Of a stretch of DNA of 64,000 nucleotides, positions 1 to 17,101 are shown one piece after another (the first letter of the stretch is position 1; every line of letters begins with the position of its first letter). The DNA comes from Synechococcus sp. RSCCF101 (GTDB lineage Bacteria; Cyanobacteriota; Cyanobacteriia; PCC-6307; Cyanobiaceae): contig NZ_CP035632.1 in assembly GCF_008807075.1 (NCBI RefSeq), positions 1,116,001 to 1,180,000 of the forward strand, given 5' to 3'. Under the pieces are notes generated by a model that was not told where the DNA came from, did no database searches, and was given only the letters and a program-made list of their open reading frames with translations. The position numbers were made by a program, and so were the translations under genes.

Positions 1-486
1 AGCGGCGCCGATGCGCTGATCAGCCTGCACCGGGCCGAAGGCTTCGGGCTGACGCTCGCCGAAGCGATGGCGGCCGAGCTGCCGGTGGTGGCCACCGCCT
101 ACTCCGGAAACCTGCTGTTCATGCCGGAGGGTTCCGCGGCGCTGGTGCCCTTCCGGCGGGTGGTGCTGAGCCGCAGCCACGCCGATTACCGGGCCGGCAT
201 GCACTGGGCCGAGCCCGATGCGGCCGCCGCCGGCCTGGCCCTGCAACGGCTCCGCAACGACCCGGCAGCCCGGCAGCGCCTCGGGGAGGCCGGGCGGCAG
301 GCGGTGGCGGAGGTGCTGGGTCGCGAACCGGTGGCCGCCCGGGTGCGGGAGCAGATCGGCTCACTGCTGCGCTGGGGCGGGCGGCGGGAGCTGCTGGCCC
401 GGCTCCGGCCCGAGGAGCCCCTGGCCCGGCTCAACCAGCCCCTGGAGCCGCTCGCGCAGGGCCCGGGCCCAGGACGGCCCGCATGA
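1..486 (+). CDS. Glycosyltransferase family 4 (group 1), C-terminal part
   Basis: The reading frame is open from the first base, so the gene begins left of the window. The visible 161 residues contain the donor-binding end of a GT-B glycosyltransferase: HRAEGFGLTLAEAM matches the E-x7-E motif, followed by PVVATAYSGN, the usual loop that contacts the nucleotide sugar. A basic, Arg-rich tail follows. The family transfers a sugar from an NDP-sugar, usually in cytoplasmic glycan assembly. The last 126 bases run antisense to the end of the leftward TPR gene. Acceptor and sugar cannot be inferred. Confidence 0.85.
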   Translation, partial: SGADALISLHRAEGFGLTLAEAMAAELPVVATAYSGNLLFMPEGSAALVPFRRVVLSRSHADYRAGMHWAEPDAAAAGLALQRLRNDPAARQRLGEAGRQAVAEVLGREPVAARVREQIGSLLRWGGRRELLARLRPEEPLARLNQPLEPLAQGPGPGRPA

Positions 487-1077
487 GGGCAGGTGCTGCA
501 GCGCCTCGTCCAGATCGAGCGCCAGCACCAGGTGATGCATGGCGTCGGCCTGCACGGCCGCATCCGCCAGCCCCTGGCGGAGCAGCCAGTCGATCAGCTC
601 GGAGCCCTGCACCCGCAGGGCCGCCTGGCAGGCGCCGCTGAGGATCTGGGCCCGGCGGCCCGGCTCCGTGGCGGTGGCGAGGAGGGCCTGGAGGCGCTCG
701 ATCGCCTCGGCGGGCCGCCGATCGAAGAGCACCTCCATCGCGTTGCGCACCGTGAGCGGGCTGTCGCTGCCTTGGCGGAGGGCGGCCTCGTACCCCTGCA
801 GGGCCCCGGTGGGATCGTGCAGGGCGCGCCGCACATCGCCGAGCTTGTGCCAGGTCCAGAAGCTGGTGGAGCCCGCATCCAGGGCGTGCCGGAGGGTGGC
901 TTCCGCCTCCCGGAAGCGGCCCTGCATGAAGCAGGCGTAGCCGAGCAGATCGAGCAGTTCGGGCCGCTCGGGTGCCGTCTGCAGCAGCCGCCGCAGGCCG
1001 CCTTCCGCCACGGGCCAGTCGCCGGCCTCGAGGGCGGCGAGGATCACCGAACGCCAGGAGCGGTCCGCCTCAGCCAT
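361..1077 (-). CDS. Tetratricopeptide-repeat protein
   Basis: A 238-residue protein read from ATG at 1077. This start overlaps the stop of the upstream glycosyltransferase by eight bases, as in a translationally coupled operon; the longer frame upstream is Arg/Pro-rich shadow of that gene. The N-terminal two thirds are TPR-like helical repeats (AALEAGDWPVAEGGLRRLL, GYACFMQGRFREAEATLRHA, KLGDVRRALHDPTGALQGYE). Such proteins act as scaffolds; the partner is not identifiable. The C-terminal 40 residues are Pro/Gln-rich and overlap the convergent glycosyltransferase gene by 126 bases, so the end of one of the two may be degenerate. Confidence 0.75.
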   Translation of the reverse strand: MAEADRSWRSVILAALEAGDWPVAEGGLRRLLQTAPERPELLDLLGYACFMQGRFREAEATLRHALDAGSTSFWTWHKLGDVRRALHDPTGALQGYEAALRQGSDSPLTVRNAMEVLFDRRPAEAIERLQALLATATEPGRRAQILSGACQAALRVQGSELIDWLLRQGLADAAVQADAMHHLVLALDLDEALQHLPSCGPSWARALRERLQGLVEPGQGLLGPEPGQQLPPPAPAQQ

Positions 1078-2278
1078 GGGGATTGGGCGCGGCCAACGAC
1101 CGCAGCAGGGCGAGCTGACGCTCCACAGCCTCCGCCACGCCGTAGCGCGCGGCCACCGTGCGCCGGGCCGCCAGCCGCAGGGGCTGCAGCGGGGCGGGCT
1201 GCTGCAGGGCGCCGCTGATGGCCGCCAGGGTGGCGCCTGGATCACCGGCCGGCACCAGCAGGCCGTTGCGGCCGTGCTCGATCACCTCCTCGGTGGCGGG
1301 GGTGCGGCCGGCCAGCACCAGGGCGCCGCAGCTCATCGCCTCCAGCAGGCTCCAGCTGAGCACGTAGGGCCGGCTGAGGTAGCAGTGCACGCTGCTGATA
1401 CGGAACAGGTTGAGCAGCTGGTCGTGGGGCAGATGGCCCACCAGGTGCAGCCGCGGCCAGGGCAGGGGCCTGGGCAGGGCCTGCAGGGCGTGGCGCAGCC
1501 AGCTGCCGCCGCCGGGGGGCGGGGAGCCGTAGAGCGATTCCTCGCGGCCGGCGATCACCACCTGCAGCTCGGGGAAGGCGGCCATCAGCTCCGGCAGCAG
1601 CGCCACGAAGCGATCGATGCCGCGGGTGTGCTCCAGGCTGCGGGCCGCGAAGCTGAGCACGGGCTGCGCGGCACTGAGGCGGCCACCATCGGGCAGGGTG
1701 AGAACGGCGAAGGGATCGGGCGCGCAGCGGTCGGTGTCGATCCCTTCGTGGATCACGTGCAGCCGGGGCCGGAGCCAGGCCGGGTAGGTGGCCTGCTGAA
1801 AGGCGGTGGCGGTGAGGCCGGCGGCCATGCGGCGGCTGGCCAGGGTCTCGGCCCACTGCAGCAGCTGGCGGGAGCCGATGCTCGCCCGATCCCCGCCGCG
1901 GAGGGCGAGCCCGGCCAGATCGAGCTCCATCACCGCCAGCAGAGGCACCGCAGGGAACACATCATCAAGCAGCAGCACATCGCCCCAGAAGGGGTGAGCC
2001 AGCACCACATCGGGCTGCCAGCCGCCGGCGGCGAGCGCGGCGAAGCAGCGGCGGGCGCGGCGGGCCTGGCGCAGCTGGGCCTGCAGGGGCTCGCGCGCGA
2101 AGCTGGCCCGCAACTCGAGGGCCGGCTGGCCGCCGGTGGCGAGGTAGCGCAGCCCGGGCGTGGCCTCCGGCCGGGCCCGGGCGCCCACAGCGGCCACCTC
2201 GTCGCCACGGCGCAGAAGTTCCGCCAGCAGATGGCGGAACTGGGCGGGGAAGTTCTGGTGAACCAGGAGAACCCGCAA
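1070..2278 (-). CDS. Glycosyltransferase family 4
   Basis: A 402-residue GT-B enzyme. The N-terminus MRVLLVHQNFPAQFRH is the typical first strand and loop of group 1 glycosyltransferases. The acceptor half runs to about residue 190 (HVIHEGIDTDRC is the inter-domain link). The donor half has VVIAGREE, HLVGHLPHDQL and a C-terminal block RPYVLSWSLLEAMSCGALVLA, where the second Glu of the E-x7-E motif is kept in LLEAM but the first is replaced. It is read after the HlyD gene with a gap of about ten bases and overlaps the downstream TPR gene. It probably builds part of the surface glycan or modifies the exported protein; the sugar is unknown. Confidence 0.9.
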   Translation of the reverse strand: MRVLLVHQNFPAQFRHLLAELLRRGDEVAAVGARARPEATPGLRYLATGGQPALELRASFAREPLQAQLRQARRARRCFAALAAGGWQPDVVLAHPFWGDVLLLDDVFPAVPLLAVMELDLAGLALRGGDRASIGSRQLLQWAETLASRRMAAGLTATAFQQATYPAWLRPRLHVIHEGIDTDRCAPDPFAVLTLPDGGRLSAAQPVLSFAARSLEHTRGIDRFVALLPELMAAFPELQVVIAGREESLYGSPPPGGGSWLRHALQALPRPLPWPRLHLVGHLPHDQLLNLFRISSVHCYLSRPYVLSWSLLEAMSCGALVLAGRTPATEEVIEHGRNGLLVPAGDPGATLAAISGALQQPAPLQPLRLAARRTVAARYGVAEAVERQLALLRSLAAPNPHG

Positions 2279-2288
2279 GGGGGATCAC

Positions 2289-3515
2289 TCAGCGGATCGT
2301 GCGCACCGCCCGGGCGCCACCGGTGAAGCGGCTGAACCAGAGCTCCATCAGGCTGGCCTTGTCGAGGCGGAGGTTGGCCACCACGGCCATGCCGGCCTGC
2401 AGCTCGTAGCGCTGGTCATCGGCCTCCAGGTACTGGCGGGCGAGAGCCAGGTTCACCGGGAAGCGGGAGTACTGGTATTCCTGATCGGGCGGGAGGGCAT
2501 CGGTGCCGATGGTGGTCACGGTGCCCTCCAGCCAGCCGTAGGTGTCGCGCCGGTAGGCGGGGAACTCCAGCTCGGCATCCTGGCCGGGCCGCACGAAGGC
2601 CAGGTCCTGATCGGGCACGTAGACCGTGGCCTGAAGGTTGTCGGTGGGCACCAGCTTGAGCAGGGGCTCGGTGGCCGGGGCCAGCAGGCCGGTCTTGGCC
2701 TCCAGGTCAAGGATGGTGCCCTCCACCGGGGCCCGCAGCACGATCTCGCGCAGACGCTGATCGGTGGCCACCTGCTCGGCCGAGTTGCCGGCCATGGCGG
2801 CGGAGAGTTCGGCCTGGCGCTGCGCGGATTCCGCCTCGAGACGGGTGATGCGGGCCTGGGTTTCGCTGATCCGGGCCAGCAGCTGGGCGCGGCTCTTCTC
2901 GGTGTCGAGCACGGCCAGCTGACCGTAGCCACCCTCCTCGGCGAGGGGGCGCAGCTGGGCGAGCTGCTCCTCGGTGAGCGCCAGCTGCTGGCGGTCGCCC
3001 ACCAGCTTGGAGCGCTCCTCCTGCAGGGAGGCCGCCACCCGGTCCACCTCGGCGCGGGAGTTGCGCACCAGATCCTCGGCCTGCTGGAGCAGGGAGCTCT
3101 GACGGGCCTGCAGCACGCGCGTGTCGAGCACCACCAGCACCTGGCCCTCCTCCACGGTGTCGCCTTCTCCCACCAGCACCCGCCGCACCACGCCCTGTTC
3201 GGGCGGTGCGATCTCCTGGGTGGAGCGCTGCGGCTGCAGGCGCCCGGCCACCGGCACCACCCGGTCCACGCGGATCAGGGCGGCGGCGCCCACCAGCACC
3301 AGCACCAGAAAGGAGAGGCTGCCGCCCACGGCGAGCGGAATCCAGGGCGCCCCACGGCTCTCCACCCGCAGATCCTCGGCGAAGGCCCGCGGGTTCGAAC
3401 CGCCGGAGCCGCGCAGGGGCTGGGCCGGGATGGGCTCGGCGGCCTTCGCCCGGCCGGTGGAGGCCGCCGAGCCTCCGAAGCGCAGCTTGTTCAGCCTGTG
3501 GAGTCCTAAGGGCAT
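2289..3515 (-). CDS. HlyD-family periplasmic adaptor of a type I secretion system
   Basis: A 408-residue membrane-fusion protein. A cytoplasmic head of about 57 residues precedes one transmembrane helix (around 58-82, PLAVGGSLSFLVLVLVGAAA). A split biotinyl-lipoyl-like half follows (IAPPEQGVVRRVLVGEGDTVEEGQVLVVLD), then a long coiled-coil hairpin rich in Glu, Gln and Arg (about 130-250), and the second lipoyl half beginning near LRAPVEGTILDL. This is the architecture of HlyD/PrtE adaptors, which link an inner-membrane ABC exporter to an outer-membrane TolC-type channel. It lies 106 bases downstream of the ABC exporter gene, its obvious partner. No TolC homologue is in the window. Confidence 0.93.
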   Translation of the reverse strand: MPLGLHRLNKLRFGGSAASTGRAKAAEPIPAQPLRGSGGSNPRAFAEDLRVESRGAPWIPLAVGGSLSFLVLVLVGAAALIRVDRVVPVAGRLQPQRSTQEIAPPEQGVVRRVLVGEGDTVEEGQVLVVLDTRVLQARQSSLLQQAEDLVRNSRAEVDRVAASLQEERSKLVGDRQQLALTEEQLAQLRPLAEEGGYGQLAVLDTEKSRAQLLARISETQARITRLEAESAQRQAELSAAMAGNSAEQVATDQRLREIVLRAPVEGTILDLEAKTGLLAPATEPLLKLVPTDNLQATVYVPDQDLAFVRPGQDAELEFPAYRRDTYGWLEGTVTTIGTDALPPDQEYQYSRFPVNLALARQYLEADDQRYELQAGMAVVANLRLDKASLMELWFSRFTGGARAVRTIR

Positions 3516-3621
3516 GGTGTGGGTTCCTCGGCAGGCGTCGCAGCGGGGCTCAGGGCCGGTTGATTGCGCTGGAGCCTAAGCAGCACGGCCTGATCCGGTC
3601 AGCCGGGCGGCCTCCCGGCGC

Positions 3622-6582
3622 TCAGGAGAGATCGCCCTGCTGCTGGCGGAAGAGGGTGGCGTAGGCGCCGTCGGCGGCCAGCAGCGCCTCGTGGCGGCCG
3701 TCCTCATCGATGCGGCCGCGGTTCATCAGCAGCACGCGATCGGCATCGCGCAGCGTGGCGAGGCGGTGGGTGATGAAGAGCACCGTCTTGCCGGCGAATT
3801 CCTGGCGCAGGTTGCTGAACACCCGCAGCTCGGTGGCGGCATCGAGCGCCGAGGTGGCTTCATCGAGGATCAGCAGTTCGGGGTTCTGCAGGATCATGCG
3901 GGCCAGGCAGAGGCGCTGGCGCTGGCCGCCGCTCACCCCGGCGCCACGCTCGCCGAGCTGAGTGGCATAGCCGTTCTCCAGGGCCTGGATGAACTCGTGG
4001 GCGCAGGCGATGCGGGCGGCGCGGATCACCGAATCGAAATCGGCTTCAGGGTTGTTGAGGCGGATGTTGTCGAGGATGGTGCCTTCGAAGAGAAGGCTGT
4101 CCTGCGGCACGTAACCCACCAGCTGGCGCAGGCTGCTGAGGCGCACCTTGCTCACATCGTTGTTGTCGATGTACACGTGCCCCGATTCCGGCAGGTAGAG
4201 CCGGTCGATCATCTGGACGAGGGTGCTCTTGCCGCTGCCGCTGAGGCCGGTGATGCCCACGAAGGAGCCGGCCTCGATGGTGCAGTCGAAGCCGTCGAGC
4301 AGCAGGGGCGTGCGGGAGCTGTAGCGGAAGCAGATGTTCTCGAAGCGCACCTCGCCGCGGATCGCATGCAGATCGGGCAGGTCCTGCTCGCTGGGGCCCG
4401 CCTCGGGCATGGCGCGCATCACCTGATCGAGGCAGTCGAGCGAGAGGCGCATCTCCTGCACCCCCTGCCAGAGGCCGAGGATGCCGATCAGGGGCTGCAC
4501 GAAGCGACCGGACAGGATCCGCACGGCGAAGATGGCGCCGATGCTGAGCTGATTGGAGAGCACCAGCACAGCGGCAGTGCCGATCAGGGCCACATCGGCG
4601 AAGCCGGAGAGCGTCTTCGCCAGCTGGTTGAGCAGGGTGCTGAGGCGGGTGAGGCGGAAGTTGGCCGCCGTGAAGCGGCGGTAGCGATCGAGCCAGCGCC
4701 AGCGGGCCTCCACCTCGAAGTTCTGGCTCTTCACGGTGCGAATGCCGCTCAGCACCTCCACCAGATAGGAGCTGGCGGAGGCGCGGTAGCGGTTGCTCAG
4801 TTGCAGCTGCTTCTGAATGATCGGGCTGGCTGTGATGTTGAGCACCAGCACCACGGGAATGAAGGCCAGGATGATCAGGGTGAGGGTGGGGGAGATCAGC
4901 AGCAGGATCACCAGAATCACCAGGGCGAACACGAGGTTCAGGCCCGCCCCCAGCAGCTGCTCGATTAGGAAGCGGCGCAGGCTGTAGAGCTGACTCACGT
5001 TGTAGAGAATCGTGCCCACCTGCCGGGATTCGAAGTAGGGCAGCGGCAGGCGCAGCAGCTGCTCCACCACGGAGGAGCCGAGCCGCACATCCACCCGATC
5101 GGAGAGATCGGCGGTCACCAGGGCCCGGGTGGCACCGAGCACACCGCTCACCAGATTGGCCGCCAGCAGCACCAGGATGATTGGAAACAGCAGCGAGGGG
5201 TTGTTGTTGCCGATCACCACATCGATCACGATCAGCAGTGAGATCGGCAGGGCCGTGTCGAGCAGCTGACCCACGAAGCCGGTGATCAGGATCATCGTGG
5301 TGGCGCCGGGATGGCGGCGCAGCTCGCCCAGAAGCCAGCCCACGCTGAGGGGCTCGCCCTGGCTGCGGGAGGCGGCACCCTCCCGCACCACCAGCAGATC
5401 GAGGCCATCGGGGAAGCGCTGCTCCAGCTGGCTGATGGAGAGGCGGATCTGGCCCTCCTCCGGATGGGCCAGCAGCAGACCGCCGCCGCGGGTGGCCAGC
5501 AGCACCATCACGAAGGTGTCCTCCAGTTCGAGCACGGCGGGCGGCTCGAGCCGGGTGAGCTCCCAGGCCCGGGCACGCAGCGGCCGGGTGTCGAAGCCGA
5601 GGGCTTCGAGCATCAGGCCGATGTGGGTGAGATGCAGCGAGCCGGAGCGCTGCTCGGTGAGCTGGAGGCTCTCGCGGATGCGACGGGCGGCGATGGTGAG
5701 CCCCTTGGCTTCGCAGAGCTGGCGGATGCAGAAGAACGCCTGACCCACCCGGTCGCCGGCCACTTCCCGGCGGCGGCCGCCTCCGGGCAGCGGACCGGCC
5801 TGGTCGGGCTCGAATCCCAGGGCCACCGGATCGGGCGCCTCGGCACTGAGGGCCTCCTCCCGCCGCAGCGGCACCAGCGGGCCGGGGGGCTCTGCCGCGG
5901 CGGCCGCCTCGTCGCCCAGCAGAGCGCGGGGCAGGGCCAGCACACGGGTGGGCAGCCGGTTCACCCGGGCCGGCAGCTGCTGCACCGCCTCGGGCGTGAG
6001 CACGGCGCCGGGCCTGAGGCCATCGGGCGTGCGCGGCCCGCTGAAGATCAGGAGGGGATCGGCGCTGGCCGCTGCGCCGCCGGGCCACACCTGGGAGGCC
6101 TCCACCAGGCTCACCAGGGCCTGGGGATCGAGCGTGCGGCGCTGACCGCTGCGCCGCCAGTGGCCGGCCACCAGCTCGGCGCATTCCTCCGGGCTGGGAT
6201 GGCTCATGAAGGCCTGCCGCAGCTCGTCGTGCTGCTGGAGCAGGGCCAGGGCGGGGGAGGCCGGCACCGCCAGCAGCACCGTGGGCTGGGAGGCCACCAC
6301 GCCGATCTCCCCCTCACCGCGCCAGATGGAGGTCCAGCCCACCCAGGCGCCCGGCTCGATCAGGCCCAGGCTCTGGGGCCCGCCGCCGGGAAGCAGCAGC
6401 AGACGCCGCAGCCGCCCCTCCACCACCAGGGCGGCCTGGGCAGCCAGCTGGCCGGGCCGCTGCAGGGGCTTGCCGGGATCGAGGCGCAGGATCGCGGCCT
6501 CGGCGGCGATGGCCTCGATCAGGGGCTGGGGCAGACCCGCTCCCAGGCCGGAGCGGGCCACCAGGGTGACGAGGCTGCTCAT
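3622..6582 (-). CDS. ABC exporter with cNMP-like and degenerate C39-like N-terminal regions
   Basis: A 986-residue exporter started at ATG 6582, which overlaps the upstream stop as ATGA. Residues ~20-140 resemble a cyclic-nucleotide-binding beta barrel (ALVVEGRLRRLLLLPGGG, GLIEPGAWVGWTSIW). After a variable linker, ~280-405 look like a C39 peptidase-like domain (FFCIRQLCEAKGLTIAARRI) lacking the clear Cys-His catalytic pattern, so it may bind rather than cleave substrate. The membrane domain covers ~420-730. The ATPase domain has Walker A GLSGSGKST, signature VSGGQRQRL, Walker B LLILDEATS and the H-loop ITHR. It should power export with the downstream HlyD adaptor; the RTX protein at 13703 is the likely cargo. 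Confidence 0.92.
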   Translation of the reverse strand: MSSLVTLVARSGLGAGLPQPLIEAIAAEAAILRLDPGKPLQRPGQLAAQAALVVEGRLRRLLLLPGGGPQSLGLIEPGAWVGWTSIWRGEGEIGVVASQPTVLLAVPASPALALLQQHDELRQAFMSHPSPEECAELVAGHWRRSGQRRTLDPQALVSLVEASQVWPGGAAASADPLLIFSGPRTPDGLRPGAVLTPEAVQQLPARVNRLPTRVLALPRALLGDEAAAAAEPPGPLVPLRREEALSAEAPDPVALGFEPDQAGPLPGGGRRREVAGDRVGQAFFCIRQLCEAKGLTIAARRIRESLQLTEQRSGSLHLTHIGLMLEALGFDTRPLRARAWELTRLEPPAVLELEDTFVMVLLATRGGGLLLAHPEEGQIRLSISQLEQRFPDGLDLLVVREGAASRSQGEPLSVGWLLGELRRHPGATTMILITGFVGQLLDTALPISLLIVIDVVIGNNNPSLLFPIILVLLAANLVSGVLGATRALVTADLSDRVDVRLGSSVVEQLLRLPLPYFESRQVGTILYNVSQLYSLRRFLIEQLLGAGLNLVFALVILVILLLISPTLTLIILAFIPVVLVLNITASPIIQKQLQLSNRYRASASSYLVEVLSGIRTVKSQNFEVEARWRWLDRYRRFTAANFRLTRLSTLLNQLAKTLSGFADVALIGTAAVLVLSNQLSIGAIFAVRILSGRFVQPLIGILGLWQGVQEMRLSLDCLDQVMRAMPEAGPSEQDLPDLHAIRGEVRFENICFRYSSRTPLLLDGFDCTIEAGSFVGITGLSGSGKSTLVQMIDRLYLPESGHVYIDNNDVSKVRLSSLRQLVGYVPQDSLLFEGTILDNIRLNNPEADFDSVIRAARIACAHEFIQALENGYATQLGERGAGVSGGQRQRLCLARMILQNPELLILDEATSALDAATELRVFSNLRQEFAGKTVLFITHRLATLRDADRVLLMNRGRIDEDGRHEALLAADGAYATLFRQQQGDLS

Positions 6583-7355
6583 GGGGCCGGCACCTGGAGG
6601 TGGGCCTCGCACCAGGCGCGCCACTGGTCGTTGAGCCAGCGGTCGCGCAGCTCGTTGAGCAGGCGCTGGCGCAGGGCCGCATCGAGGCGGGCCGGGCTGC
6701 GCTCCTCCACCCGGATCAGATGCACGGTGCCGTCGATGTCCACCGGGGGCACGAGGGTGCCGGGCTCATGGCGGCGCAGGATGCGGGCGATGAGGGGGTG
6801 GAGCTGGCTGATGGGCAGCGGCCCCACGAAGCCCCGCCGGGCCCGGTCGGCCGGCTCGCCATGGCGCAGGGCCAGCTCCTGCAGGGTCACGCTGCCCTCC
6901 TGCAACTGGAAATAGAACTCGGTGGCCAGATCGGCATCGCGGAGGCGCAGCAGGCTGAAGCTCACGCTCTCCAGGTCGTTGCGGCGCTCGATGTAGTGGC
7001 CGGCCACCTCCGGTTCCCACACCTGGCGCACGGCAGCGGCCAGCTGATCGGGGAAGCAGGCCAGCTGATCGAGGCTGGTGGGGGGCAGACCCAGCCCGGC
7101 CGAGGCGCGCTCGATCGCCTCGAGATCGCGCAGGCCGTAGCGCAGGCCCCAGGCCCGCAGCCGGGTCGCCAGCTGCTCCGGCTCCTGCGCGGCGGCCAGG
7201 GAGCGCGCCACGCCGGTGTGGCGGATCAGGGCGTTCTGGAGCTGGCGCCGGGCCCAGGGCTGGAGCAGCTCGGCCTCGAGCAGCGGGCCCAGCAGGGCCG
7301 GCTCCGGCAGGGGCACCTGCTGCCAGAGATCCCCGGGTCCGGCGGCCACGGCCAT
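6579..7355 (-). CDS. Parvulin/SurA-like peptidyl-prolyl isomerase of the secretion operon
   Basis: A 258-residue protein with no obvious signal peptide. The N-terminal ~120 residues are helical, as in the SurA/PrsA chaperone arm. Residues ~130-225 resemble a PpiC domain: FSLLRLRDADLATEFYFQL, then GFVGPLPISQLHPLIARIL and PGTLVPPVDIDGTVHLIRVEE, the conserved end of parvulin domains. Its start codon shares one base with the upstream TPR stop and its stop overlaps the exporter start, so the three genes are tightly coupled. The position suggests a chaperone for the exported substrate before passage through the ABC exporter. Some parvulin catalytic residues are not evident, so isomerase activity is uncertain. 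Confidence 0.8.
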   Translation of the reverse strand: MAVAAGPGDLWQQVPLPEPALLGPLLEAELLQPWARRQLQNALIRHTGVARSLAAAQEPEQLATRLRAWGLRYGLRDLEAIERASAGLGLPPTSLDQLACFPDQLAAAVRQVWEPEVAGHYIERRNDLESVSFSLLRLRDADLATEFYFQLQEGSVTLQELALRHGEPADRARRGFVGPLPISQLHPLIARILRRHEPGTLVPPVDIDGTVHLIRVEERSPARLDAALRQRLLNELRDRWLNDQWRAWCEAHLQVPAP

Positions 7356-8077
7356 CAGCGGCCGCCCGAGCCGGCGCCGGCCTTCGCTTCGGCGGCGAAC
7401 AGGTCGCGGAACACCACGGCGGCCCGCTGGAAGTCACCCCGGCGTTCGAGCAGCTCCGCCAGATGCCGGGTGAGGCTGATGTTGCCCACGCTGCGGTACA
7501 CGCCGAGCAGGATCTCGATCGCCTCGCCGTCGTTGCCCATGGCCTCGAGGGTGGTGGCGGCCTGCACGAGCTTGGCCGGTTCGAGGTGATCGCGCCTGGC
7601 CCGGTAGATGCGCAGCACCACCTTGGCGGCGTCCATCTCGCGGCCGAGGGTGAGCAGGGCCAGGGCCAGGTTGGTGAGGGCGGCCAGGGAGGAGGCGGAG
7701 CCCTCGGGCACCTGACGCACGGCACGGGTGAGGGTGGCGCTGGCCGCCTGGGCATCGCCCCGCTTGAGCTCGAGGCCGCCGAGGTTCACCAGCGAGCGGG
7801 CGTGGTTGGGGTTGCGGCTGAGGGCCTGGCGCAGCAGGGGCTCCGCTTCGCCGGGGCGGTTCTGCAGCAGCAGGGTCATGGCCAACAGGCAGAGGCCCTC
7901 CTCATGGGACGCCAGCTCGGCTGGCAGCCGGCGGGCCTCCACCTCCACCTGCGCTGCGGTGCGGGGGGTGAGGCGCTCGCGCAGGGGGCGGATGCGGCTC
8001 TCGATCCGCTCGGTGGCGAGGCGTTGCGGCGACACGGAGCTCAGCTGCCGTTCGGCCGGTGCGGGGGTGGGTTGCAC
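7355..8077 (-). CDS. TPR protein of the secretion operon
   Basis: About 240 residues with several TPR units between ~50 and 220 (LLQNRPGEAEPLLRQALSRN, LGGLELKRGDAQAASATLTRA, LAELLERRGDFQRAAVVFRD). The ATG at 8077 overlaps the upstream gene by 37 bases. A GTG at 8035, eight bases after the start of that gene's TGA, is a reasonable alternative that avoids the overlap and shortens the protein by 14 residues. The stop codon overlaps the start of the parvulin gene. It probably acts as an adaptor within the secretion or glycan machinery; no enzyme motif is present. Confidence 0.8.
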   Translation of the reverse strand: MQPTPAPAERQLSSVSPQRLATERIESRIRPLRERLTPRTAAQVEVEARRLPAELASHEEGLCLLAMTLLLQNRPGEAEPLLRQALSRNPNHARSLVNLGGLELKRGDAQAASATLTRAVRQVPEGSASSLAALTNLALALLTLGREMDAAKVVLRIYRARRDHLEPAKLVQAATTLEAMGNDGEAIEILLGVYRSVGNISLTRHLAELLERRGDFQRAAVVFRDLFAAEAKAGAGSGGR

Positions 8078-8616: not shown

Positions 8617-8639
8617 GGTTCCGGCCGGGAATGGCGGCA

Positions 8640-11264: not shown

Positions 11265-12344
11265 ATGGCGATGGCTCTTTCCAGCACCGCCGGCCGCTGC
11301 CTGCAGCAGCTGCAGCAGCGTCCGGGCGACCGGGGCGCCCTGGCGCACCTCTACTACCTGCCCCTGGCGGCGGCGGAGAAACGCCTGGCGCTGGATGCGC
11401 TGGCGGAGCTGGCCGGCCTGGGCCGGCTGGAACAGAGCCTGAGCGCGGCCCAGCGGCAGCGGGCTCTCAGCAGCCCCGCCATCACCCCGATGCTGCTGGC
11501 CCTGCTGGCGCTCTGGGCCAGCGAGCTGGAGCAGGAGGGGCTGGATGCGGCGCTGCGGCGCTGCCTGTGGGAGCGAACCGTGCCGGCCGAGCGCCTGCTG
11601 CCGGAAGCCCCGGCCACGGCCGAGCCAGCCTCGGCGGGGCCGGGGCTGCTGATCATCGGCGCACCGAAATCGGGCACCACATCCCTGGCGGCCTATCTGG
11701 CCCGGCACCGCGAGGTGTGGATGCACCCGATCAAGGAGCTGCATTTCTTCGATCAGCGCTGGCCGCTGGGGGCGAGCTGGTACCGCCAGCGCTTTCCCCG
11801 GTTCGAGGAGGGGCTGGGGATGCTCTGCGCCGAGGCCACGCCCAGCTACCTGCTCGATGGGGCCGTGCCGGCGCGGGTGCAGCGCACGCTGGGGCGGGTG
11901 AAGCTGATCGCCCTGCTGCGGGAGCCGCTGGAGCGGGCCCATAGCTGGCTGCGGCACATGCGTCAGTTCACGCCGTTGCCCCGGAGCGATGCCGCCCTGC
12001 TGCGAGAGGAGGCCGAGGCGCTGGCGGGGGGTAGTGGTGCGGCCCATCCGCCGGTGCGAGCCCTGGAGGGGAGCCTCTACGGGCGGCACCTGCAGGCCTG
12101 GCGGCGCTGCTTCGGGGAGGACACCCTGCTGCTGCTGCGCTTTGAAGACCTGCGCGATCAGCCGGAGGCCGTGATGGACCGGGTGGTTCACTTCCTGCAG
12201 CTGCCCGCGGATGCCGCGGAGCCGCCCCGCTTCCCCGTGTACAACCCCTCCAGCACCCCGGCGGAGCCCCTGCCGATCGATCTGGCCCGGGAGCTGCGGG
12301 CCGGCGTGCTGGCCGAGGCCCTGGATCTCTGGGCCTCGCTCTGA
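11265..12344 (+). CDS. Sulfotransferase, PAPS-dependent
   Basis: A 359-residue protein. The first ~120 residues are helical and unassigned. The catalytic domain begins at LLIIGAPKSGTTSLAAYL, the 5'-phosphosulfate-binding loop, followed by PIKELHFFD. The 3'-phosphate motif appears as LLREPLERAHSWLRHM. FEDLRDQPEAVMDRVVHFL is the usual C-terminal region. The family moves sulfate from PAPS to sugar hydroxyls or other acceptors. The ATG at 11265 directly abuts the preceding TGA, with a second ATG at 11271. Its position after the GT2-GT61 gene points to sulfation of the same glycan. Confidence 0.9.
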   Translation: MAMALSSTAGRCLQQLQQRPGDRGALAHLYYLPLAAAEKRLALDALAELAGLGRLEQSLSAAQRQRALSSPAITPMLLALLALWASELEQEGLDAALRRCLWERTVPAERLLPEAPATAEPASAGPGLLIIGAPKSGTTSLAAYLARHREVWMHPIKELHFFDQRWPLGASWYRQRFPRFEEGLGMLCAEATPSYLLDGAVPARVQRTLGRVKLIALLREPLERAHSWLRHMRQFTPLPRSDAALLREEAEALAGGSGAAHPPVRALEGSLYGRHLQAWRRCFGEDTLLLLRFEDLRDQPEAVMDRVVHFLQLPADAAEPPRFPVYNPSSTPAEPLPIDLARELRAGVLAEALDLWASL

Positions 12345-12348
12345 CGTC

Positions 12349-13653
12349 ATGACGATGGATTTCCCGACCCAGGCGCAGCAGGCCCTCAGCGACCTGCGGG
12401 AGGGCCGCAGCCCCAGCGGCCTGACGGGGGAGGAGGCCTTCAGCGCCTTCTGCCAGGAAGCCGCCAACTGGTGGCTGCTGCTGGGGGAGGGCTCCGCATC
12501 GGCGCGCTGGCGCGGCTGGGCGCTGCTGACGCCGGAGCCAGCCGCGCTGATGGCCGGCCTGGAGGCGTTGCTGCAGCGCCTGAGCGAAACCGATGCCACC
12601 GAGGGACCCGGCCACACCACCGGCTCCAGCCCAGGAGCCGACGCACTCTCCGCCGAGGCGATCCTGCAGCGGCTGGGTGCGGCAGAGCGGGGGCGGGCCC
12701 GCTTCCCGGGCCCCCACCAGCTGCTGCAGTGGGCCTACCGGCTGGCCAAGGCGGGCGAAGCCCGGGCCGCGCTGGCCACCTATCTGCGGGTGGCACGGGA
12801 TCAGGATCTGCCGGTGGCGGTGTGCAACGCGATCGGCTCGCTGCAGGAGCAGCTGGGCGATCTCTGGCTGGCGGAGCGCTGGTTTCTCACCAGCCTCAGC
12901 AAGCAGCCGCAGCAGGTGGGGGTGTTGTGCCATCTCAGCCGGCTGCGGCTGCGGCAGGGGGTGTGGGATGAGGCCTGGCTGGCGGCGGCGCAGGCGGTTC
13001 AGCTGAACCGGGAGCTGGAGTGGCCGCGCCAGCTGCTGAGCCGCTGCGCCCTCGAGAGCGGCGGCTGCCGCACCCTGGCCTGGATCGAGCAGCAGGACCT
13101 GCTGCCGCGGGAACCGGCCCACCGCAAGCCGGTGCTGGCCCAGCGCGCCCGGCTGCAGCGCTGGCCACTCACCGCTCCGGCCGCCGCGCCCTGGCCCGGC
13201 GCCGGCCTCGAGCAGCGGCTGGCCCTGCACCGACGCTGCCGCCCGGCACGTCATCTGGTGCTCGTGCATGGCCGCACGCTCCAGGCGCTGCACTGGCTGC
13301 TGGCGGAAGGTCTGATCGAGACGGGCACGGTGATCCACCCCAGCGCCAGCCGGGATCCGCTGGGGGTGGAGCAGGGCCTGCAGGCGCTGGGGCTGGAGGC
13401 CGCCCCGGAGCAGCCGCTGGAGGCGCTGGCCGGCTCCCTGCCGGATCCCTTTGCCCTGGTGGTGTGCAGACACAAACACCAGGCCGTGCATCACGCCCTG
13501 GGCCAGTTGTTGAACCGGGCCAGCTATTCCTTCTGCCACCGCAGCACCATCGGCGCCGATTCCCAGGCCGACGTGTTCAGCGTGAACGGTTACAACCTGC
13601 GCAGCGGCCGCATCTCATCCGTCGCGTCAGGAGACCCACACAGCAGCGATTGA
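12349..13653 (+). CDS. TPR-containing protein of unknown function
   Basis: A 434-residue protein started at ATG 12349, four bases after the sulfotransferase stop. Residues ~130-270 form TPR-like helices (RLAKAGEARAALATYLRVA, IGSLQEQLGDLWLAERWFL, SRLRLRQGVWDEAWLAAAQ). The C-terminal ~140 residues (HLVLVHGRTLQALHWLLAEG, DPFALVVCRHKHQAVHHAL) look like an alpha/beta fold that I cannot assign. Spacing indicates co-transcription with the two upstream genes. A role as glycan or sulfation accessory is inference from context only. Confidence 0.75.
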   Translation: MTMDFPTQAQQALSDLREGRSPSGLTGEEAFSAFCQEAANWWLLLGEGSASARWRGWALLTPEPAALMAGLEALLQRLSETDATEGPGHTTGSSPGADALSAEAILQRLGAAERGRARFPGPHQLLQWAYRLAKAGEARAALATYLRVARDQDLPVAVCNAIGSLQEQLGDLWLAERWFLTSLSKQPQQVGVLCHLSRLRLRQGVWDEAWLAAAQAVQLNRELEWPRQLLSRCALESGGCRTLAWIEQQDLLPREPAHRKPVLAQRARLQRWPLTAPAAAPWPGAGLEQRLALHRRCRPARHLVLVHGRTLQALHWLLAEGLIETGTVIHPSASRDPLGVEQGLQALGLEAAPEQPLEALAGSLPDPFALVVCRHKHQAVHHALGQLLNRASYSFCHRSTIGADSQADVFSVNGYNLRSGRISSVASGDPHSSD

Positions 13654-13679
13654 CAGCCCTGAACCCCAATCAGTAGGTT
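13650..13679 (+). promoter_or_regulatory. Possible promoter of the RTX gene
   Basis: TTGACA at 13650-13655 overlaps the preceding stop codon. TAGGTT at 13674-13679 lies 18 bases on, a weak -10 match. The AT-richer stretch up to the ATG at 13703 stands out in this GC-rich region. The match is partial and could be chance. Confidence 0.3.
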
Positions 13680-13702
13680 GCAACAACTAATAAGACTGGG
13701 TC

Positions 13703-14488
13703 ATGTCTTTCGTCGTCCCGCCAGACGAGACTGTTTTCGACACGTCCCAGGTTCCTGTGGATGAGGAGACCGGCGAGCAGGCTCCCATTTTCGTTGAGGG
13801 CACTCCGACCGGCTCCGAGACCCAGACGGTGGTCGTCAATTCAGACGACGCCACCATTGGCCTCGGCACCGGCAGCGTCAACATCGTTGTGGAGAGCGGT
13901 GGGGCGATCATCGAATCGCTGCCCACCACTCAGGAAGTGAGCGGCGACAAGATCATCACCGCTGTGGAGATCGAGGACCCCCCGGCCATCAGTCAGGACA
14001 CGGAACTCGCTCCCGAGCCCGGCGCTCCCGAGGGCACCCCTGCGCCCACCATCAGCCAGGTGACCGGCGGCCTGGCCGATGACGTGGAGATCAACAACTA
14101 CGTCCACACCGGTGCCGGCAACGACACCATCACCTACTCCGGCAACAACGATCTGATCCGCGCCGGCGGCGGCGACGACACAGTGGTGGCCGGCGGCGGC
14201 GCCGACCTGGTTCGGGGCGGTTCCGGCAGCGACCAGGTGTCCCTCGGAGAAGGTGAAGACACGCTGTACTTCACCACCGACCAGGTGGTGACCGGCGATG
14301 CCGACACCATCACCGACTTCACCGCCGGCGAAGACCAGATCGCCTTCCTGGCCTCCGACATTCAGTCGCCTGTGGGCGGCCTGGGCACCGACACCCTTGT
14401 CATCACCAACACGGCGGGCGAAACGATCACCCTCACGGCCACCAACGGCCACATCTGGTCGGAAGACGACATCCAGTTCGTGGTCTGA
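13703..14488 (+). CDS. Acidic RTX (haemolysin-type calcium-binding) protein, likely type I secretion substrate
   Basis: A 261-residue, strongly acidic protein with no N-terminal signal peptide. Residues ~125-200 carry RTX-type nonapeptides in series (HTGAGNDTITYSG, IRAGGGDDTVV, AGGGADLVRGGSGSDQV, LGEGEDTLYF). These bind calcium and fold after export. A C-terminal beta region follows (ADTITDFTAGEDQIAF, then repeated Thr/Val/Ile), a layout shared by proteins exported through HlyB/HlyD systems with a C-terminal signal. The exporter and adaptor genes lie about 7-10 kb to the left. The first 120 residues are Thr/Val/Glu/Pro-rich with no enzyme motif, so it may be a structural surface or matrix protein. 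Confidence 0.85.
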   Translation: MSFVVPPDETVFDTSQVPVDEETGEQAPIFVEGTPTGSETQTVVVNSDDATIGLGTGSVNIVVESGGAIIESLPTTQEVSGDKIITAVEIEDPPAISQDTELAPEPGAPEGTPAPTISQVTGGLADDVEINNYVHTGAGNDTITYSGNNDLIRAGGGDDTVVAGGGADLVRGGSGSDQVSLGEGEDTLYFTTDQVVTGDADTITDFTAGEDQIAFLASDIQSPVGGLGTDTLVITNTAGETITLTATNGHIWSEDDIQFVV

Positions 14489-14524
14489 TCCATTCTGGAT
14501 ATCCTCCTCACCCAGGGCTGACGC

Positions 14525-17101
14525 TTGGCTTGGCTGGAACTCACGCTCCGTGTGCCCTCCAGCTCGGCCATCAGCCACCTGTTCCGGCTCAGCCTCCCCG
14601 GCACCTCCGAGTCGGTGCTGATCCGGGCCAGCAACCACTGGCCCACCAGCACGGTTTATTTCGACGCCGATGGTTCATCCGCTGAGCCAGCAGGGGTGGC
14701 CCCTGGCCTCACCTGCCTCTCCGATCCCGAGCTGACGGCCTCGCTGGAGTGCCGGTCCATCAGCCCGATGCGGGCCTACCTGGGCATCAGTCGGCAGCTC
14801 TGCGCCGATGATCCGGCCACGCTCTACACCTCACCCGCTGAGCTGCGCGGCGACCTGGAGCATCTGCCGCTGCCGGAGCGACTGGCGCTGCTGCAGCCGA
14901 TCTACGCCCGCCACCTGCGCGAGCGGCAGGCGCCCCTCGCCTCGGCCGACTGGCTTGAGCTGAAGCCGCTGCTGGAGAGCGCCACCGAACCGCCGGCGCC
15001 CGAAGCTCTGGGGCCGCTGGAGCGGCAGGTGCAGCAGCTCTGGCGGCAACTGGCAACGTGCCCGGCGCCCTCGGAGCCAGGGGAGCGGGTGTCGATCGTG
15101 ATTCCCTCCTACGGCAACTGGCAGCAGACGCTGCAGTGCCTCTGGAGCCTGCTGCTGGATGCGGCCACGGCTTCAGGCCCGGCCCTGGAGCTGATCCTGA
15201 TGGACGACTGCTCGCCGGAGCCACCGCCGGAGGTGTTTCAGGCTCTCGAAGCCGAACCGCACCGGCACCAGCTGAGGCTGCTGCGCAACGCCAGCAACCT
15301 GGGCTACCTGCGCAGCTGCAACGCGGGTGCCGCACGCGCCAGCGGAGCCTGGATCGTGCTGCTCAACAACGACACGCTGGTGTGCAGCGGCTGGTTGCCG
15401 CCGCTGCTGGCCACCTTCCGCCGCTTTCCGGCAGCGGGACTGGTGGGGCCGCAGCTGCTCTATCCCAATGGCCGACTGCAGGAGGCGGGCGGGATCGTGT
15501 GGGCCGATGGTTCGGCCTGGAACTACGGGCGCGACGGGGAACGCAACGATCCGGCTTACCGCTTCCTGCGGGAGGTGGATTACATCTCCGGCGCCTGCCT
15601 GATGATCAGCCGGGCCGTGCTGGAGCGCAGCGGCGGCTTCGATCCGCGCTACGCCCCCGCTTATTACGAAGACACCGACCTGGCCATGCAGGTGCGGGCC
15701 CTGGGCCTGCGGGTGTACGTGCAGCCGCTCTCGCAGGTGATCCACTGCGAGGGGGCCTCCAGCGGCCGCGATCCCCAGAGCGGCGTGAAGCGCTACCAGC
15801 TCCGCAACCAGCAGCTCTTCCGCGGCAAGTGGAGCTCCGTGCTGGAGCAGCACCAGGCCAACGCCACGAAGGTGCTGCAAGCCTCGAATCGCTGTGTGGG
15901 CCGGATCCTCATCCTCGAGGTGACCCTGCCCACCCCCGATCAGGACGCCGGCTCGCTCTACATCCACAACCTGATGGTGGATCTGCGGGCCCTCGGCTAC
16001 CACCTCACCTACGTGCCGGTGGACAACTTGCTCGACCGGCCCGATTACGGCGATCCGCTGCGGGCGATGGGGGTGGAGGTGATCCACCACCCCTGGATCA
16101 GCAACGTGGAGGCCTATCTGCAGGAGCAGGCCGCCAGCTTCGATGCCGTGTTGCTGTGCCGGCCGCAGGTGGCGGAGCGCTGCCTGGATCTGCTGCGGGA
16201 AGCAGCGCCCTATGTGCCGCTGCTGTACTACAGCCACGATCTGCATGGCCTGCGGATGGAGCGGCAGCGGCAGCTGGCCCCGGATCAGGTGAGTGAGCTG
16301 GAGCTGCAGCGGATGGACGCCCTGGAGCGGCGCATCCTGCACGCGGTGGATGTGGCGGTGCTGCTGAGCGAGGCGGAGCGCCAGGCGGCCGAGGAGCGGC
16401 TGCAGCCCAGCTGCGTACTGGCGGTGCTGCCGCCACGGGTTTCGGCCACGCGCTCCACCGTGCCGTTCGCAGAGCGGAGTGATGTGGTGTTCGTGGGCGG
16501 CTTCGGGCACCCGCCGAATCTGGATGCGGTGCGCTTCTACATCGAAGCGGTGATGCCGCGGCTGCGGGAGCGTGGCTGCTGCCCGCGCCTGCATGTGGTG
16601 GGCTCCAAGCCACCGCCGGAGCTACTCACGCTTGAAGGCGAGGATGTGGTGGTGCACGGCTACGTGGCCGATCTGGAAGCCCTGCTCAGCCGGATGCGGT
16701 TGGCGGTGCTGCCGCTGCGCTACGGCGCCGGTGTGAAAGGCAAGGTGCTCCTGGCGATGGCCTGCGGCCTGCCGATGGTGCTGACCCCGGTGGCCGCTGA
16801 AGGCCTGGGGCTGCGGGATGGGGTGCAGGCCCGCATCGCGGCCGACGCCGAGGCCTTCGCCGCCGCTGTGCAGCACAGCTACCAGCACGACGACATCTGG
16901 CAGGGCCTGGCCGATGCGGCCCAGACGCACCTGGAGCGGGGCTGGGGGCAGGTGGCCTGCCAGGAGAGCCTGAGAGAGCTGTTGCAGCAGGTGCATCTGC
17001 CTGCCAGGTCGCCCGCAGATCCGACCCCGGAGGACGGCTGGGCGCCGGCAACAGGCGCGGGGGAGGAGGAGCTCCTGGCCTTCTACACCTTGCCTGGATG
17101 A
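14525..17101 (+). CDS. Two-domain glycosyltransferase (GT2 plus GT4-like)
   Basis: An 858-residue protein beginning at TTG 14525. An in-frame TGA lies six bases upstream and AGGG sits seven bases before the TTG. Residues ~190-430 are a GT2 domain: VSIVIPSYGNWQQTLQCL, LMDDCSPE, LLNNDTLVC as the DxD-type region, and YYEDTDLAMQVRALG. From ~460 the chain becomes a GT-B-like transferase (SLYIHNLMVDLRALGYHL, VFVGGFGHPPNLDAVRFY, LPLRYGAGVKGKVLLAMACG). This pairing occurs in large capsule or O-chain glycosyltransferases. It lies in the direction of the upstream RTX gene. Confidence 0.88.
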   Translation: MAWLELTLRVPSSSAISHLFRLSLPGTSESVLIRASNHWPTSTVYFDADGSSAEPAGVAPGLTCLSDPELTASLECRSISPMRAYLGISRQLCADDPATLYTSPAELRGDLEHLPLPERLALLQPIYARHLRERQAPLASADWLELKPLLESATEPPAPEALGPLERQVQQLWRQLATCPAPSEPGERVSIVIPSYGNWQQTLQCLWSLLLDAATASGPALELILMDDCSPEPPPEVFQALEAEPHRHQLRLLRNASNLGYLRSCNAGAARASGAWIVLLNNDTLVCSGWLPPLLATFRRFPAAGLVGPQLLYPNGRLQEAGGIVWADGSAWNYGRDGERNDPAYRFLREVDYISGACLMISRAVLERSGGFDPRYAPAYYEDTDLAMQVRALGLRVYVQPLSQVIHCEGASSGRDPQSGVKRYQLRNQQLFRGKWSSVLEQHQANATKVLQASNRCVGRILILEVTLPTPDQDAGSLYIHNLMVDLRALGYHLTYVPVDNLLDRPDYGDPLRAMGVEVIHHPWISNVEAYLQEQAASFDAVLLCRPQVAERCLDLLREAAPYVPLLYYSHDLHGLRMERQRQLAPDQVSELELQRMDALERRILHAVDVAVLLSEAERQAAEERLQPSCVLAVLPPRVSATRSTVPFAERSDVVFVGGFGHPPNLDAVRFYIEAVMPRLRERGCCPRLHVVGSKPPPELLTLEGEDVVVHGYVADLEALLSRMRLAVLPLRYGAGVKGKVLLAMACGLPMVLTPVAAEGLGLRDGVQARIAADAEAFAAAVQHSYQHDDIWQGLADAAQTHLERGWGQVACQESLRELLQQVHLPARSPADPTPEDGWAPATGAGEEELLAFYTLPG

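What the first reader, a model, noticed from the sequence alone, without database searches (positions are those of the whole stretch)
361..17101. Candidate glyco- and sulfo-modified RTX export system
One locus combines a type I ABC exporter, HlyD adaptor, parvulin-like protein, TPR scaffolds, an acidic RTX protein without signal peptide, three glycosyltransferases (two bifunctional) and a sulfotransferase. The couplings (ATGA or shared-base overlaps at 6579-6582 and 7355) show that the export genes act together. It is plausible, not shown, that the RTX protein or an associated polysaccharide is glycosylated and sulfated around export.
Basis: partly seen in the sequence, partly recalled or inferred. 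Interest (0 to 1): 0.72.

Follow-up and report, generated by a model that had tools for sequence, protein, structure and literature searches.

The report
Picocyanobacterial RTX export and glycosylation cluster
A cyanobacterium carries a conserved gene cluster that pairs a secretion pump and its likely cargo, a small calcium-binding surface protein, with enzymes that build and sulfate sugars, so it may export a sugar-coated protein; the pairing is real, but the coating itself is unproven.

Summary
In detail: a type I ABC exporter, HlyD, cytosolic parvulin and TPR gene form one overlapping unit; divergent to it lies a tight operon of a GT2-GT61 fusion, a sulfotransferase, an unnamed protein ("J") and a 261-residue RTX protein. 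The genome holds three such exporters, each with parvulin, HlyD and an RTX gene. In 13 of 13 sampled genomes with an exporter 48-100% identical, GT2-GT61 lies divergently 1.8-2.05 kb away; J occurs in 12, RTX on the same contig in 10, the sulfotransferase within 10 kb in only 8. PF00685 sulfotransferases cluster at the family's exporters (13 of 48 within 10 kb, 0.76 expected). The sulfotransferase resembles heparan-sulfate sulfotransferases, so a sugar is its likelier acceptor. The exporter's C39-like domain lacks the catalytic cysteine. Most likely the cluster exports the RTX protein and decorates it beforehand with an often sulfated glycan. That is inferred: RsaA-like non-covalent anchoring is nearly as likely, and the genome's third exporter locus holds a Wzm/Wzt-type polysaccharide transporter. 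Glycosylated cyanobacterial RTX proteins (SwmA, oscillin) are known, so this is a new variant of a known kind.

The parts
361..1077 (-). TPR protein, start overlaps the GT4 stop by 8 bases
   Evidence: TPR_14 E 1.6e-9; 43% identical gene at the same place in G032; overlap read
1070..2278 (-). GT4-type glycosyltransferase (Glyco_trans_4_3 + Glycos_transf_1), TTG start
   Evidence: PF12000 E 6.7e-25, PF00534 E 1.6e-16; 49% identical gene downstream of HlyD in G032; a PF12000 GT also lies downstream of the RTX gene of the third own locus
2289..3515 (-). HlyD-type membrane fusion protein
   Evidence: PF13437 E 7.7e-19; TIGR01843 E 3.7e-45, below its cut-off; HlyD within 5 kb of 51 of 53 exporters
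3622..6582 (-). Type I ABC exporter, 986 aa: weak cNMP-like domain, C39-like domain without catalytic Cys, TM domain, ATPase
   Evidence: PF00664 E 8e-33, PF00005 E 2e-30; TIGR01846 HlyB-type E 1.6e-149, below its cut-off; full-length relatives; catalytic columns
6579..7355 (-). Parvulin-like PPIase-domain protein, probably cytosolic, coupled to the ABC gene by ATGA
   Evidence: PF00639 E 6.3e-5; no hydrophobic stretch; parvulin within 5 kb of 47 of 53 exporters
7355..8077 (-). TPR protein, coupled to parvulin by TGATG
   Evidence: TPR_14 E 2.8e-12; 41% to the second half of a 441-aa frame in G032
8041..8616 (-). Frame resembling the first part of that TPR gene in relatives; frame break in a Pro-codon-rich linker
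   Evidence: by eye; no Pfam family, no BLAST hit at 1e-8
8631..11264 (+). GT2-GT61 fusion glycosyltransferase, 877 aa, divergent to the export genes
   Evidence: PF00535 E 1.5e-25, PF04577 E 2e-16; beside the exporter in 13 of 13 orthologue genomes
11265..12344 (+). Carbohydrate-type (heparan-sulfate-like) sulfotransferase
   Evidence: PF00685 E 7e-15; HS 3-O-sulfotransferase 3A1 E 1.2e-18 among solved structures; 41% to the G032 copy with the PKSGTTSL and KELHFFD stretches identical
12349..13653 (+). 'J': probably helical, TPR-like N-terminal half (low-confidence model) and C-terminal region of unknown family; marker of the cluster
   Evidence: no Pfam family; found in 12 of 14 genomes, each time beside other genes of the cluster; model pLDDT 44
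13703..14488 (+). Small acidic RTX protein, 261 aa, the likely export substrate
   Evidence: PF00353 E 3.4e-7; relatives linked to the cluster; pI 4.05, 0 Cys
14525..17101 (+). GT2-GT4 fusion glycosyltransferase (true start uncertain; domains from residue 190)
   Evidence: PF00535 E 5.5e-20, PF13692 E 2.6e-25; 37-38% relatives beside exporters in G035 and G005
28197..29078 (-). Methyltransferase-domain protein, possible outlier of the same cluster beyond transposase-like frames
   Evidence: PF08241 E 1e-10; 53% identical to a gene 8.5 kb downstream of the G032 exporter

Best explanation
A dedicated surface-protein export and decoration cluster. The ABC exporter with HlyD, and presumably a TolC encoded elsewhere, secretes the neighbouring small RTX protein by the type I route without cleaving a leader. 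The cytosolic parvulin and TPR proteins handle the unfolded substrate at the exporter. Before export the soluble GT2-GT61 fusion and the other glycosyltransferases put a glycan on the RTX protein, and in most but not all genomes a PAPS-dependent sulfotransferase sulfates it. Outside, calcium folds the RTX repeats and the acidic glycoprotein joins the cell coat. Shown here: the genes, their coupling and their conservation as a cluster, and that no flippase- or polymerase-like gene was seen among the window-type cluster proteins scanned. Inferred: that the RTX protein is the substrate, that the glycan is on that protein rather than on another molecule, the order of steps, and the roles of parvulin, TPR proteins and J.
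For: RTX next to parvulin-ABC-HlyD in all three exporter loci of this genome and within 10 kb of 28 of 53 family exporters against 0 of 20 controls. GT2-GT61 divergent at 1.8-2.05 kb in 13 of 13, J in 12 of 13, RTX same contig in 10 of 13. RTX shares a tight + strand gene string with GT2-GT61, sulfotransferase and J. Carbohydrate-type sulfotransferase. PF00685 enrichment at exporters, 13 of 48 against 0.76 expected. Catalytic Cys of C39 absent in 71 of 73 exporters examined, in keeping with uncleaved RTX substrates. Among 16 window proteins scanned only the ABC has more than one hydrophobic stretch and none matched a flippase, polymerase or priming-transferase family in Pfam, so the sugar enzymes look soluble. 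Precedent: SwmA and oscillin are RTX proteins of cyanobacteria reported as glycosylated (PMC3034196, passages).
Against: No direct evidence of glycan or sulfate on the RTX protein. Sulfotransferase not near the exporter in 3 of 13. No glycosylation motif recognised; the N-terminal 110 residues hold 12-26% Ser+Thr in five RTX proteins, not striking. The third exporter locus of this genome has a Wzm/Wzt-type polysaccharide transporter 5-8 kb upstream of the exporter (ABC2_membrane and Wzt_C over cut-off), and similar-looking ATPase frames lie near exporters of G007, G020, G023, G025, G028 and G035 (by eye). Glycosyltransferases are common in picocyanobacterial genomic islands (PMC2441476, passages). 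TolC was not searched for. Many RTX genes lie elsewhere in the genome, so the exporter may serve other cargo. 25 of 53 exporters have no RTX hit within 10 kb, though some flanks are cut by contig ends.
Confidence: 0.42

Rival explanations
1. RsaA-like: the glycosyltransferases and sulfotransferase build a surface polysaccharide or O-antigen, and the exported RTX protein binds it non-covalently with calcium. The genes cluster because coat protein and its anchor are made together.
For: The Caulobacter S-layer RTX protein RsaA binds O-antigen in a calcium-regulated way (PMC6978808, abstract), and S-layer RTX proteins are described as acidic and without cysteine (PMC3034196, passage), as here. Several exporter loci of the family hold many GT4-type genes. 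The third own locus has a Wzm/Wzt-type polysaccharide transporter, with similar-looking ATPase frames near six relatives' exporters (by eye).
Against: In the window cluster no polytopic membrane protein other than the ABC exporter among 16 proteins scanned, nor in locus 2 apart from its ABC and a glycosyltransferase with two hydrophobic stretches; no Wzt-like frame within 13 kb of the window-type exporters of G000 and G032. The sugar genes are packed in one string with the RTX gene. None of this excludes use of polysaccharide genes elsewhere.
Confidence: 0.37
2. Hot-spot co-location: export, RTX and sugar genes are separate functions gathered in a variable surface island and not one pathway.
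For: Picocyanobacterial islands are rich in glycosyltransferases, ABC transport genes and transposases (PMC2441476, passages). The window beyond 17.5 kb is full of transposase-like frames (recognised by eye).
Against: Orientation and a 1.8-2.05 kb spacing of GT2-GT61 to ABC kept in 13 of 13 genomes with 8 genus labels, at 48-59% exporter identity for the 12 others; abutting genes. A hot spot would not keep one spacing. The order of J, sulfotransferase and RTX does vary.
Confidence: 0.11
3. The parvulin-ABC-HlyD unit mainly exports something else, a small modified peptide or another large RTX protein, and the small RTX gene is incidental.
For: The parvulin scores against TIGR04500, a putative peptide maturation family (E 4.6e-6, far below its cut-off). 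Large RTX frames lie elsewhere in the genome. About half of the family's exporters have no RTX hit within 10 kb.
Against: The C39-like domain lacks the catalytic Cys that leader cleavage needs. Each of the three exporters in this genome has an RTX gene within 7.1 kb, and window-type exporters have the specific small RTX relative.
Confidence: 0.1

Closest known systems
SwmA of Synechococcus sp. WH8102
   Same: RTX protein of a cyanobacterium at the cell surface, reported as glycosylated (PMC3034196, PMC2943079, passages); its genomic island also holds a glycosyltransferase (PMC7522525, passage)
   Different: 130 kDa S-layer and motility protein against about 26 kDa here; no sequence comparison made; no sulfotransferase or GT2-GT61 partner mentioned in the passages read
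Oscillin of Phormidium uncinatum
   Same: Cyanobacterial RTX protein described as highly glycosylated (PMC3034196, passage)
   Different: 646 residues with 46 repeats, fibril-forming; no gene cluster described in the passage
Caulobacter RsaA type I secretion and O-antigen anchoring
   Same: Acidic RTX surface protein, calcium-dependent, secreted by the type I route, linked to sugar synthesis
   Different: Glycan is LPS O-antigen bound non-covalently (PMC6978808, abstract). No parvulin, J or sulfotransferase there is known to me (recalled, not searched)
HlyB-HlyD type I secretion
   Same: ABC exporter with a C39-like domain and HlyD; that HlyB's domain also lacks the catalytic Cys is recalled
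   Different: Extra N-terminal cNMP-like domain, coupled parvulin and TPR genes, divergent sugar genes; TIGR01846 score 499 against cut-off 726
NodO of Rhizobium
   Same: Small (30 kDa) RTX protein (PMC3034196, passage)
   Different: Nodulation role; no sequence comparison made

Membership tests
Type I secretion system | ABC exporter with TM and ATPase domains | tested here: met
   PF00664 and PF00005 over cut-off
Type I secretion system | HlyD-type adaptor in the same unit | tested here: met
   PF13437 over cut-off; TIGR01843 below its cut-off
Type I secretion system | TolC-type outer membrane channel | not tested
   None among the cluster proteins scanned; the genome was not searched for it
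RTX proteins | Gly/Asp-rich nonapeptide repeats | tested here: met
   PF00353 30.5 bits against 23; GxGxD-type units at residues 137, 155, 164, 173 and 182
RTX proteins | No N-terminal signal peptide, uncleaved C-terminal secretion signal | tested here: inconclusive
   No hydrophobic stretch; no signal-peptide predictor was run and the C-terminal signal cannot be proven from sequence
C39 peptidase exporters (PCAT, NHLP) | Catalytic Cys and His | tested here: not met
   Window has Gln and Thr in those columns; Cys present in 2 of 73 exporters, Cys and His together in 1 of 73
HlyB-type exporter (TIGR01846) | Score over the curated cut-off | tested here: not met
   499.3 bits against 725.6, though the best NCBIfam hit
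Carbohydrate sulfotransferase (PF00685) | Family match with PAPS-binding loop | tested here: met
   55.5 bits against 22; PKSGTTSL conserved. Naming the loop and the catalytic Glu of the HFFD stretch is recalled
Carbohydrate sulfotransferase (PF00685) | Acceptor is a sugar | not testable with these tools
   Needs an enzyme assay; the resemblance is a lead
Wzx/Wzy or Wzm/Wzt polysaccharide cluster | Flippase, polymerase, priming transferase or ABC-2 exporter in the cluster | tested here: not met
   Window cluster: no such Pfam family and 1 of 16 proteins with more than one hydrophobic stretch, the ABC exporter (crude scan). Own locus 3 does have Wzm/Wzt-type genes nearby
S-layer RTX protein (SwmA, RsaA) | 40-200 kDa, lattice-forming, abundant | tested here: not met
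   261 aa, about 26 kDa by length; lattice and abundance not testable

The most novel reading that the evidence does not exclude
A cytosolic pathway that glycosylates and sulfates a type I secretion substrate before export: a bacterial counterpart of a sulfated glycoprotein or minimal proteoglycan, built by soluble GT2-GT61 (and in the sister locus GT47 exostosin-type) enzymes with heparan-sulfate-like sulfotransferases, and passed through an ABC-HlyD-TolC channel with its sugars on.
Probability: 0.23. Interest if true: 0.8.

Novelty: new variant of a known kind. Interest (0 to 1): 0.5.

Why it matters
Glycosylated RTX proteins of cyanobacteria are in print, but the passages read here do not say how their sugars are made or whether sugars pass through the type I channel. 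This cluster puts a candidate substrate, its exporter and its sugar enzymes side by side in a set of genes kept across several genera of Cyanobium/Synechococcus-like genomes, which makes the question testable by single gene deletions. If covalent, it would show a type I system exporting a pre-glycosylated, perhaps sulfated, polypeptide. If not, it is a further lineage in which an RTX surface protein and its anchor glycan are inherited together.

Tried and rejected
Structure models of J and of the RTX protein were made without alignments and were poor (mean pLDDT 44 and 43), so no fold search was run. The parvulin matched no solved structure by sequence at E 0.01; the C39-like region alone gave one insignificant hit (E 0.44). 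Rfam (gathering threshold) and tRNA scans of the window gave nothing. The iterative 'J' and TPR profiles drifted towards general TPR proteins, so J labels are not used as evidence; J counts come from the single-sequence search. The J-like frame of own locus 2 is weak (24% in alignment, no BLAST hit at 1e-8). Surroundings were fetched for 53 of the 64 exporter matches (37 of 38 in the family, 16 of 26 outside it), and some flanks are cut by contig ends, so neighbour counts are lower bounds. The PF00685 count uses 24 of the 25 family genomes with an exporter (G002 left out) and includes the hits under the family cut-off. The 20 control regions come from 5 genomes and are 20 kb against about 23 kb. 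In one search three rows (L213, L219, L222), whose longest frame was not the exporter, and the reference row L017 were dropped before counting 73; L017 proved unsuitable as an active C39 reference, so an exporter row of G053 carrying the DCG motif was used. The greedy gene list for G032 contains shadow frames over its true glycosyltransferase genes, so its hydropathy counts are not used. Checking the draft brought up the Wzm/Wzt-type genes of own locus 3; because of them I lowered the best explanation from 0.45 to 0.42, the hot-spot rival from 0.12 to 0.11 and the novel case from 0.25 to 0.23, and raised the RsaA-like rival from 0.33 to 0.37. Peptide-export (NHLP/RiPP) readings were considered and ranked lower. 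A claim of no precedent is limited to searches of one open-licence library; the McCarren and Brahamsha motility papers did not come up in them and were not read.


Full report
What is there. The window is C1:1116001-1180000 of a 2.98-Mb cyanobacterial genome. Between 361 and 17101 lie two divergent gene sets. On the minus strand: TPR 7355-8077 (with a probable split-off upstream frame 8041-8616), parvulin 6579-7355, ABC exporter 3622-6582, HlyD 2289-3515, a GT4-type glycosyltransferase 1070-2278 and a TPR protein 361-1077. On the plus strand: a GT2-GT61 fusion 8631-11264, a sulfotransferase 11265-12344, a protein without Pfam match that I call J (12349-13653), the 261-residue RTX protein 13703-14488 and a GT2-GT4 fusion 14525-17101. 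The overlaps at 6579-6582 (ATGA) and 7355 (TGATG) are real, and the plus strand genes are just as tightly packed: the sulfotransferase ATG follows the GT2-GT61 stop directly, J starts 4 bases after the sulfotransferase stop, RTX 49 bases after J. The set runs past the left edge of the window with further TPR, GT2 and GT-like genes.

The same genome repeats the design. A search of the genome with the exporter found two more full-length relatives, 39% and 37% identical. Each has a parvulin just upstream, HlyD just downstream and an RTX gene close by. The best own relative of the window's RTX protein is the one beside the second exporter (48% over its C-terminal half). That second locus also holds GT2, GT61, a GT47 exostosin-type enzyme and a Sulfotransfer_2 protein; the third holds a PF12000 glycosyltransferase of the window's GT4 type next to its RTX gene and a PF00685 sulfotransferase about 5 kb downstream of the exporter. 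Against my reading, the third locus also has an ABC-2 permease and a Wzt-type ATPase 5-8 kb upstream of the exporter, beyond another large frame: the ordinary way to export a polysaccharide.

The exporter family is old; the cluster is narrower. 43 of 60 genomes, this one included and 37 of them from its family, have the exporter at E 1e-100. In the 53 exporters (of 64 matches) whose surroundings I fetched, a parvulin lies within 5 kb of 47 and HlyD of 51; an RTX gene lies within 10 kb of 28 and a glycosyltransferase of 29, against 0 of 20 control regions of 20 kb for each. The controls come from five genomes only, and the profiles were seeded with window proteins. Of 48 PF00685 sulfotransferase hits in 24 exporter-bearing genomes of the family, 13 lie within 10 kb of an exporter where 0.76 are expected from genome sizes; sizes of relatives are rounded. 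Seen per exporter the association is modest: 11 of 37 family exporters have such a hit within 10 kb.

The window-type cluster. In 400 genomes sampled from the family, 25 have the exporter at E 1e-175; 13 including this one carry it at 48-100% identity (one of these, G370, is cut by a contig end). In these 13 the GT2-GT61 gene lies on the opposite strand at 1.81-2.05 kb from the exporter in 13 of 13 (coordinates). J occurs in 12 of 13 and was not found in G362. A relative of the small RTX protein is on the same contig in 10 of 13, at 6.3-7.5 kb in 8 of these; in G362 it is a fragment at a contig end 13 kb away and in G060 the RTX and J genes are turned round and 12-14 kb away. In the other three it lies on another contig, in two of them together with J and the sulfotransferase. 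The sulfotransferase is within 10 kb in 8 of 13, on such another contig in 2, 18 and 24 kb away in 2, and not near in 1. So export, RTX, J and GT2-GT61 form the constant core and sulfation looks like a frequent option. The parvulin-ABC coupling is kept too: in 12 of 12 loci examined the nearest ABC start lies from 1 base before to 6 bases after the first base of the parvulin stop codon, overlapping in 9. Two of the 80 named loci returned match GT2-GT61 over its whole length: Synechococcus sp. CS-1329 and Cyanobium sp. FGCU6.

What the parts say about mechanism. The C39-like region has Gln and Thr where active peptidases have Cys and His; Cys is present in only 2 of 73 exporters examined and both residues in 1. 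So no leader is likely to be cleaved, as for HlyB-type export of RTX proteins (recalled). The RTX protein has pI 4.05, one Lys, two Arg and no Cys, matching the description of S-layer RTX proteins as acidic and without cysteine (PMC3034196, passages), though at 261 residues it is much smaller. The sulfotransferase's best solved relatives are heparan-sulfate 3-O- and N-sulfotransferases (E 1e-18 and 6e-17), with the PKSGTTSL and KELHFFD stretches identical in the G032 copy. That points to a sugar rather than tyrosine as acceptor; the catalytic reading of these stretches is recalled. No polytopic membrane protein other than the exporter was seen among 16 window proteins and no polysaccharide flippase, polymerase or priming family among the cluster proteins scanned with Pfam, so the sugar enzymes look soluble and no lipid-linked route is visible in the window cluster itself. 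The membrane scan is a simple hydropathy window.

Reading. I think the cluster exports the small RTX protein by the type I route and puts a glycan, often sulfated, on it beforehand. Export of the RTX protein is supported by repeated linkage; joint function of the sugar enzymes with it is supported by synteny and gene packing; covalent attachment is an inference at little better than even odds against RsaA-like anchoring, in which the enzymes make a surface glycan that the RTX protein binds with calcium (PMC6978808, abstract). Mere hot-spot co-location is hard to square with one spacing kept in 13 genomes.

Known or new. Glycosylated RTX proteins of cyanobacteria are known: SwmA appears glycosylated and oscillin is described as highly glycosylated (PMC3034196, passages; PMC2943079, table passage). 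The island with swmA holds a glycosyltransferase (PMC7522525, passage). What I did not find in ten paper searches, of which I opened six papers in part, is a conserved cluster tying such an exporter and its RTX gene to a GT2-GT61 fusion and a heparan-sulfate-like sulfotransferase. I file it as a new variant of a known kind, type I export of cyanobacterial RTX surface proteins, with linked decoration genes.

Noticed in passing
window 8041-8110: The TPR gene looks broken between two frames inside a Pro-codon-rich, C-rich linker, while two relatives (G023, G032) have one frame of 384 and 441 aa; sequencing error, decay or slippage cannot be told apart.
   Followed up: partly
window 17500-53000: Dense transposase-like frames (recognised by eye), several repeated almost identically, with GC-poor cargo (24-30, 38-40 and 46-48 kb; 46-56% GC against 61-76% elsewhere) that includes GT4, GT2, a methyltransferase and a Sulfotransfer_2 protein.
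   Followed up: partly
G000:C1:1222360 to beyond 1251999 (-), L062/L063: A giant open frame with an RTX match, 11377 aa (9879 aa seen), in the size class of SwmB (10791 aa, PMC4949707, passage).
   Followed up: partly
L057 (C1:1915000-1934900): Sister locus with GT47 exostosin/RXYLT1-like, GT61, GT2 and Sulfotransfer_2 proteins around the second exporter: a second sugar-enzyme set beside a second RTX protein.
   Followed up: partly
L059:3857-6155 (C1:1823856-1826154): ABC2_membrane and Wzt_C proteins, a polysaccharide ABC exporter, upstream of the third type I exporter.
   Followed up: partly
G053:C1:2976194-2979319: The only exporter of 73 with both C39 catalytic residues, beside a second exporter without them and with an RTX gene about 9 kb away; may process a different cargo.
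   Followed up: no
window 54389-55306, L059:9573-10535 and L057:18947-19792: Proteins with a sulfotransferase-like P-loop to the eye but no Pfam match; possible unrecognised sulfotransferases.
   Followed up: no
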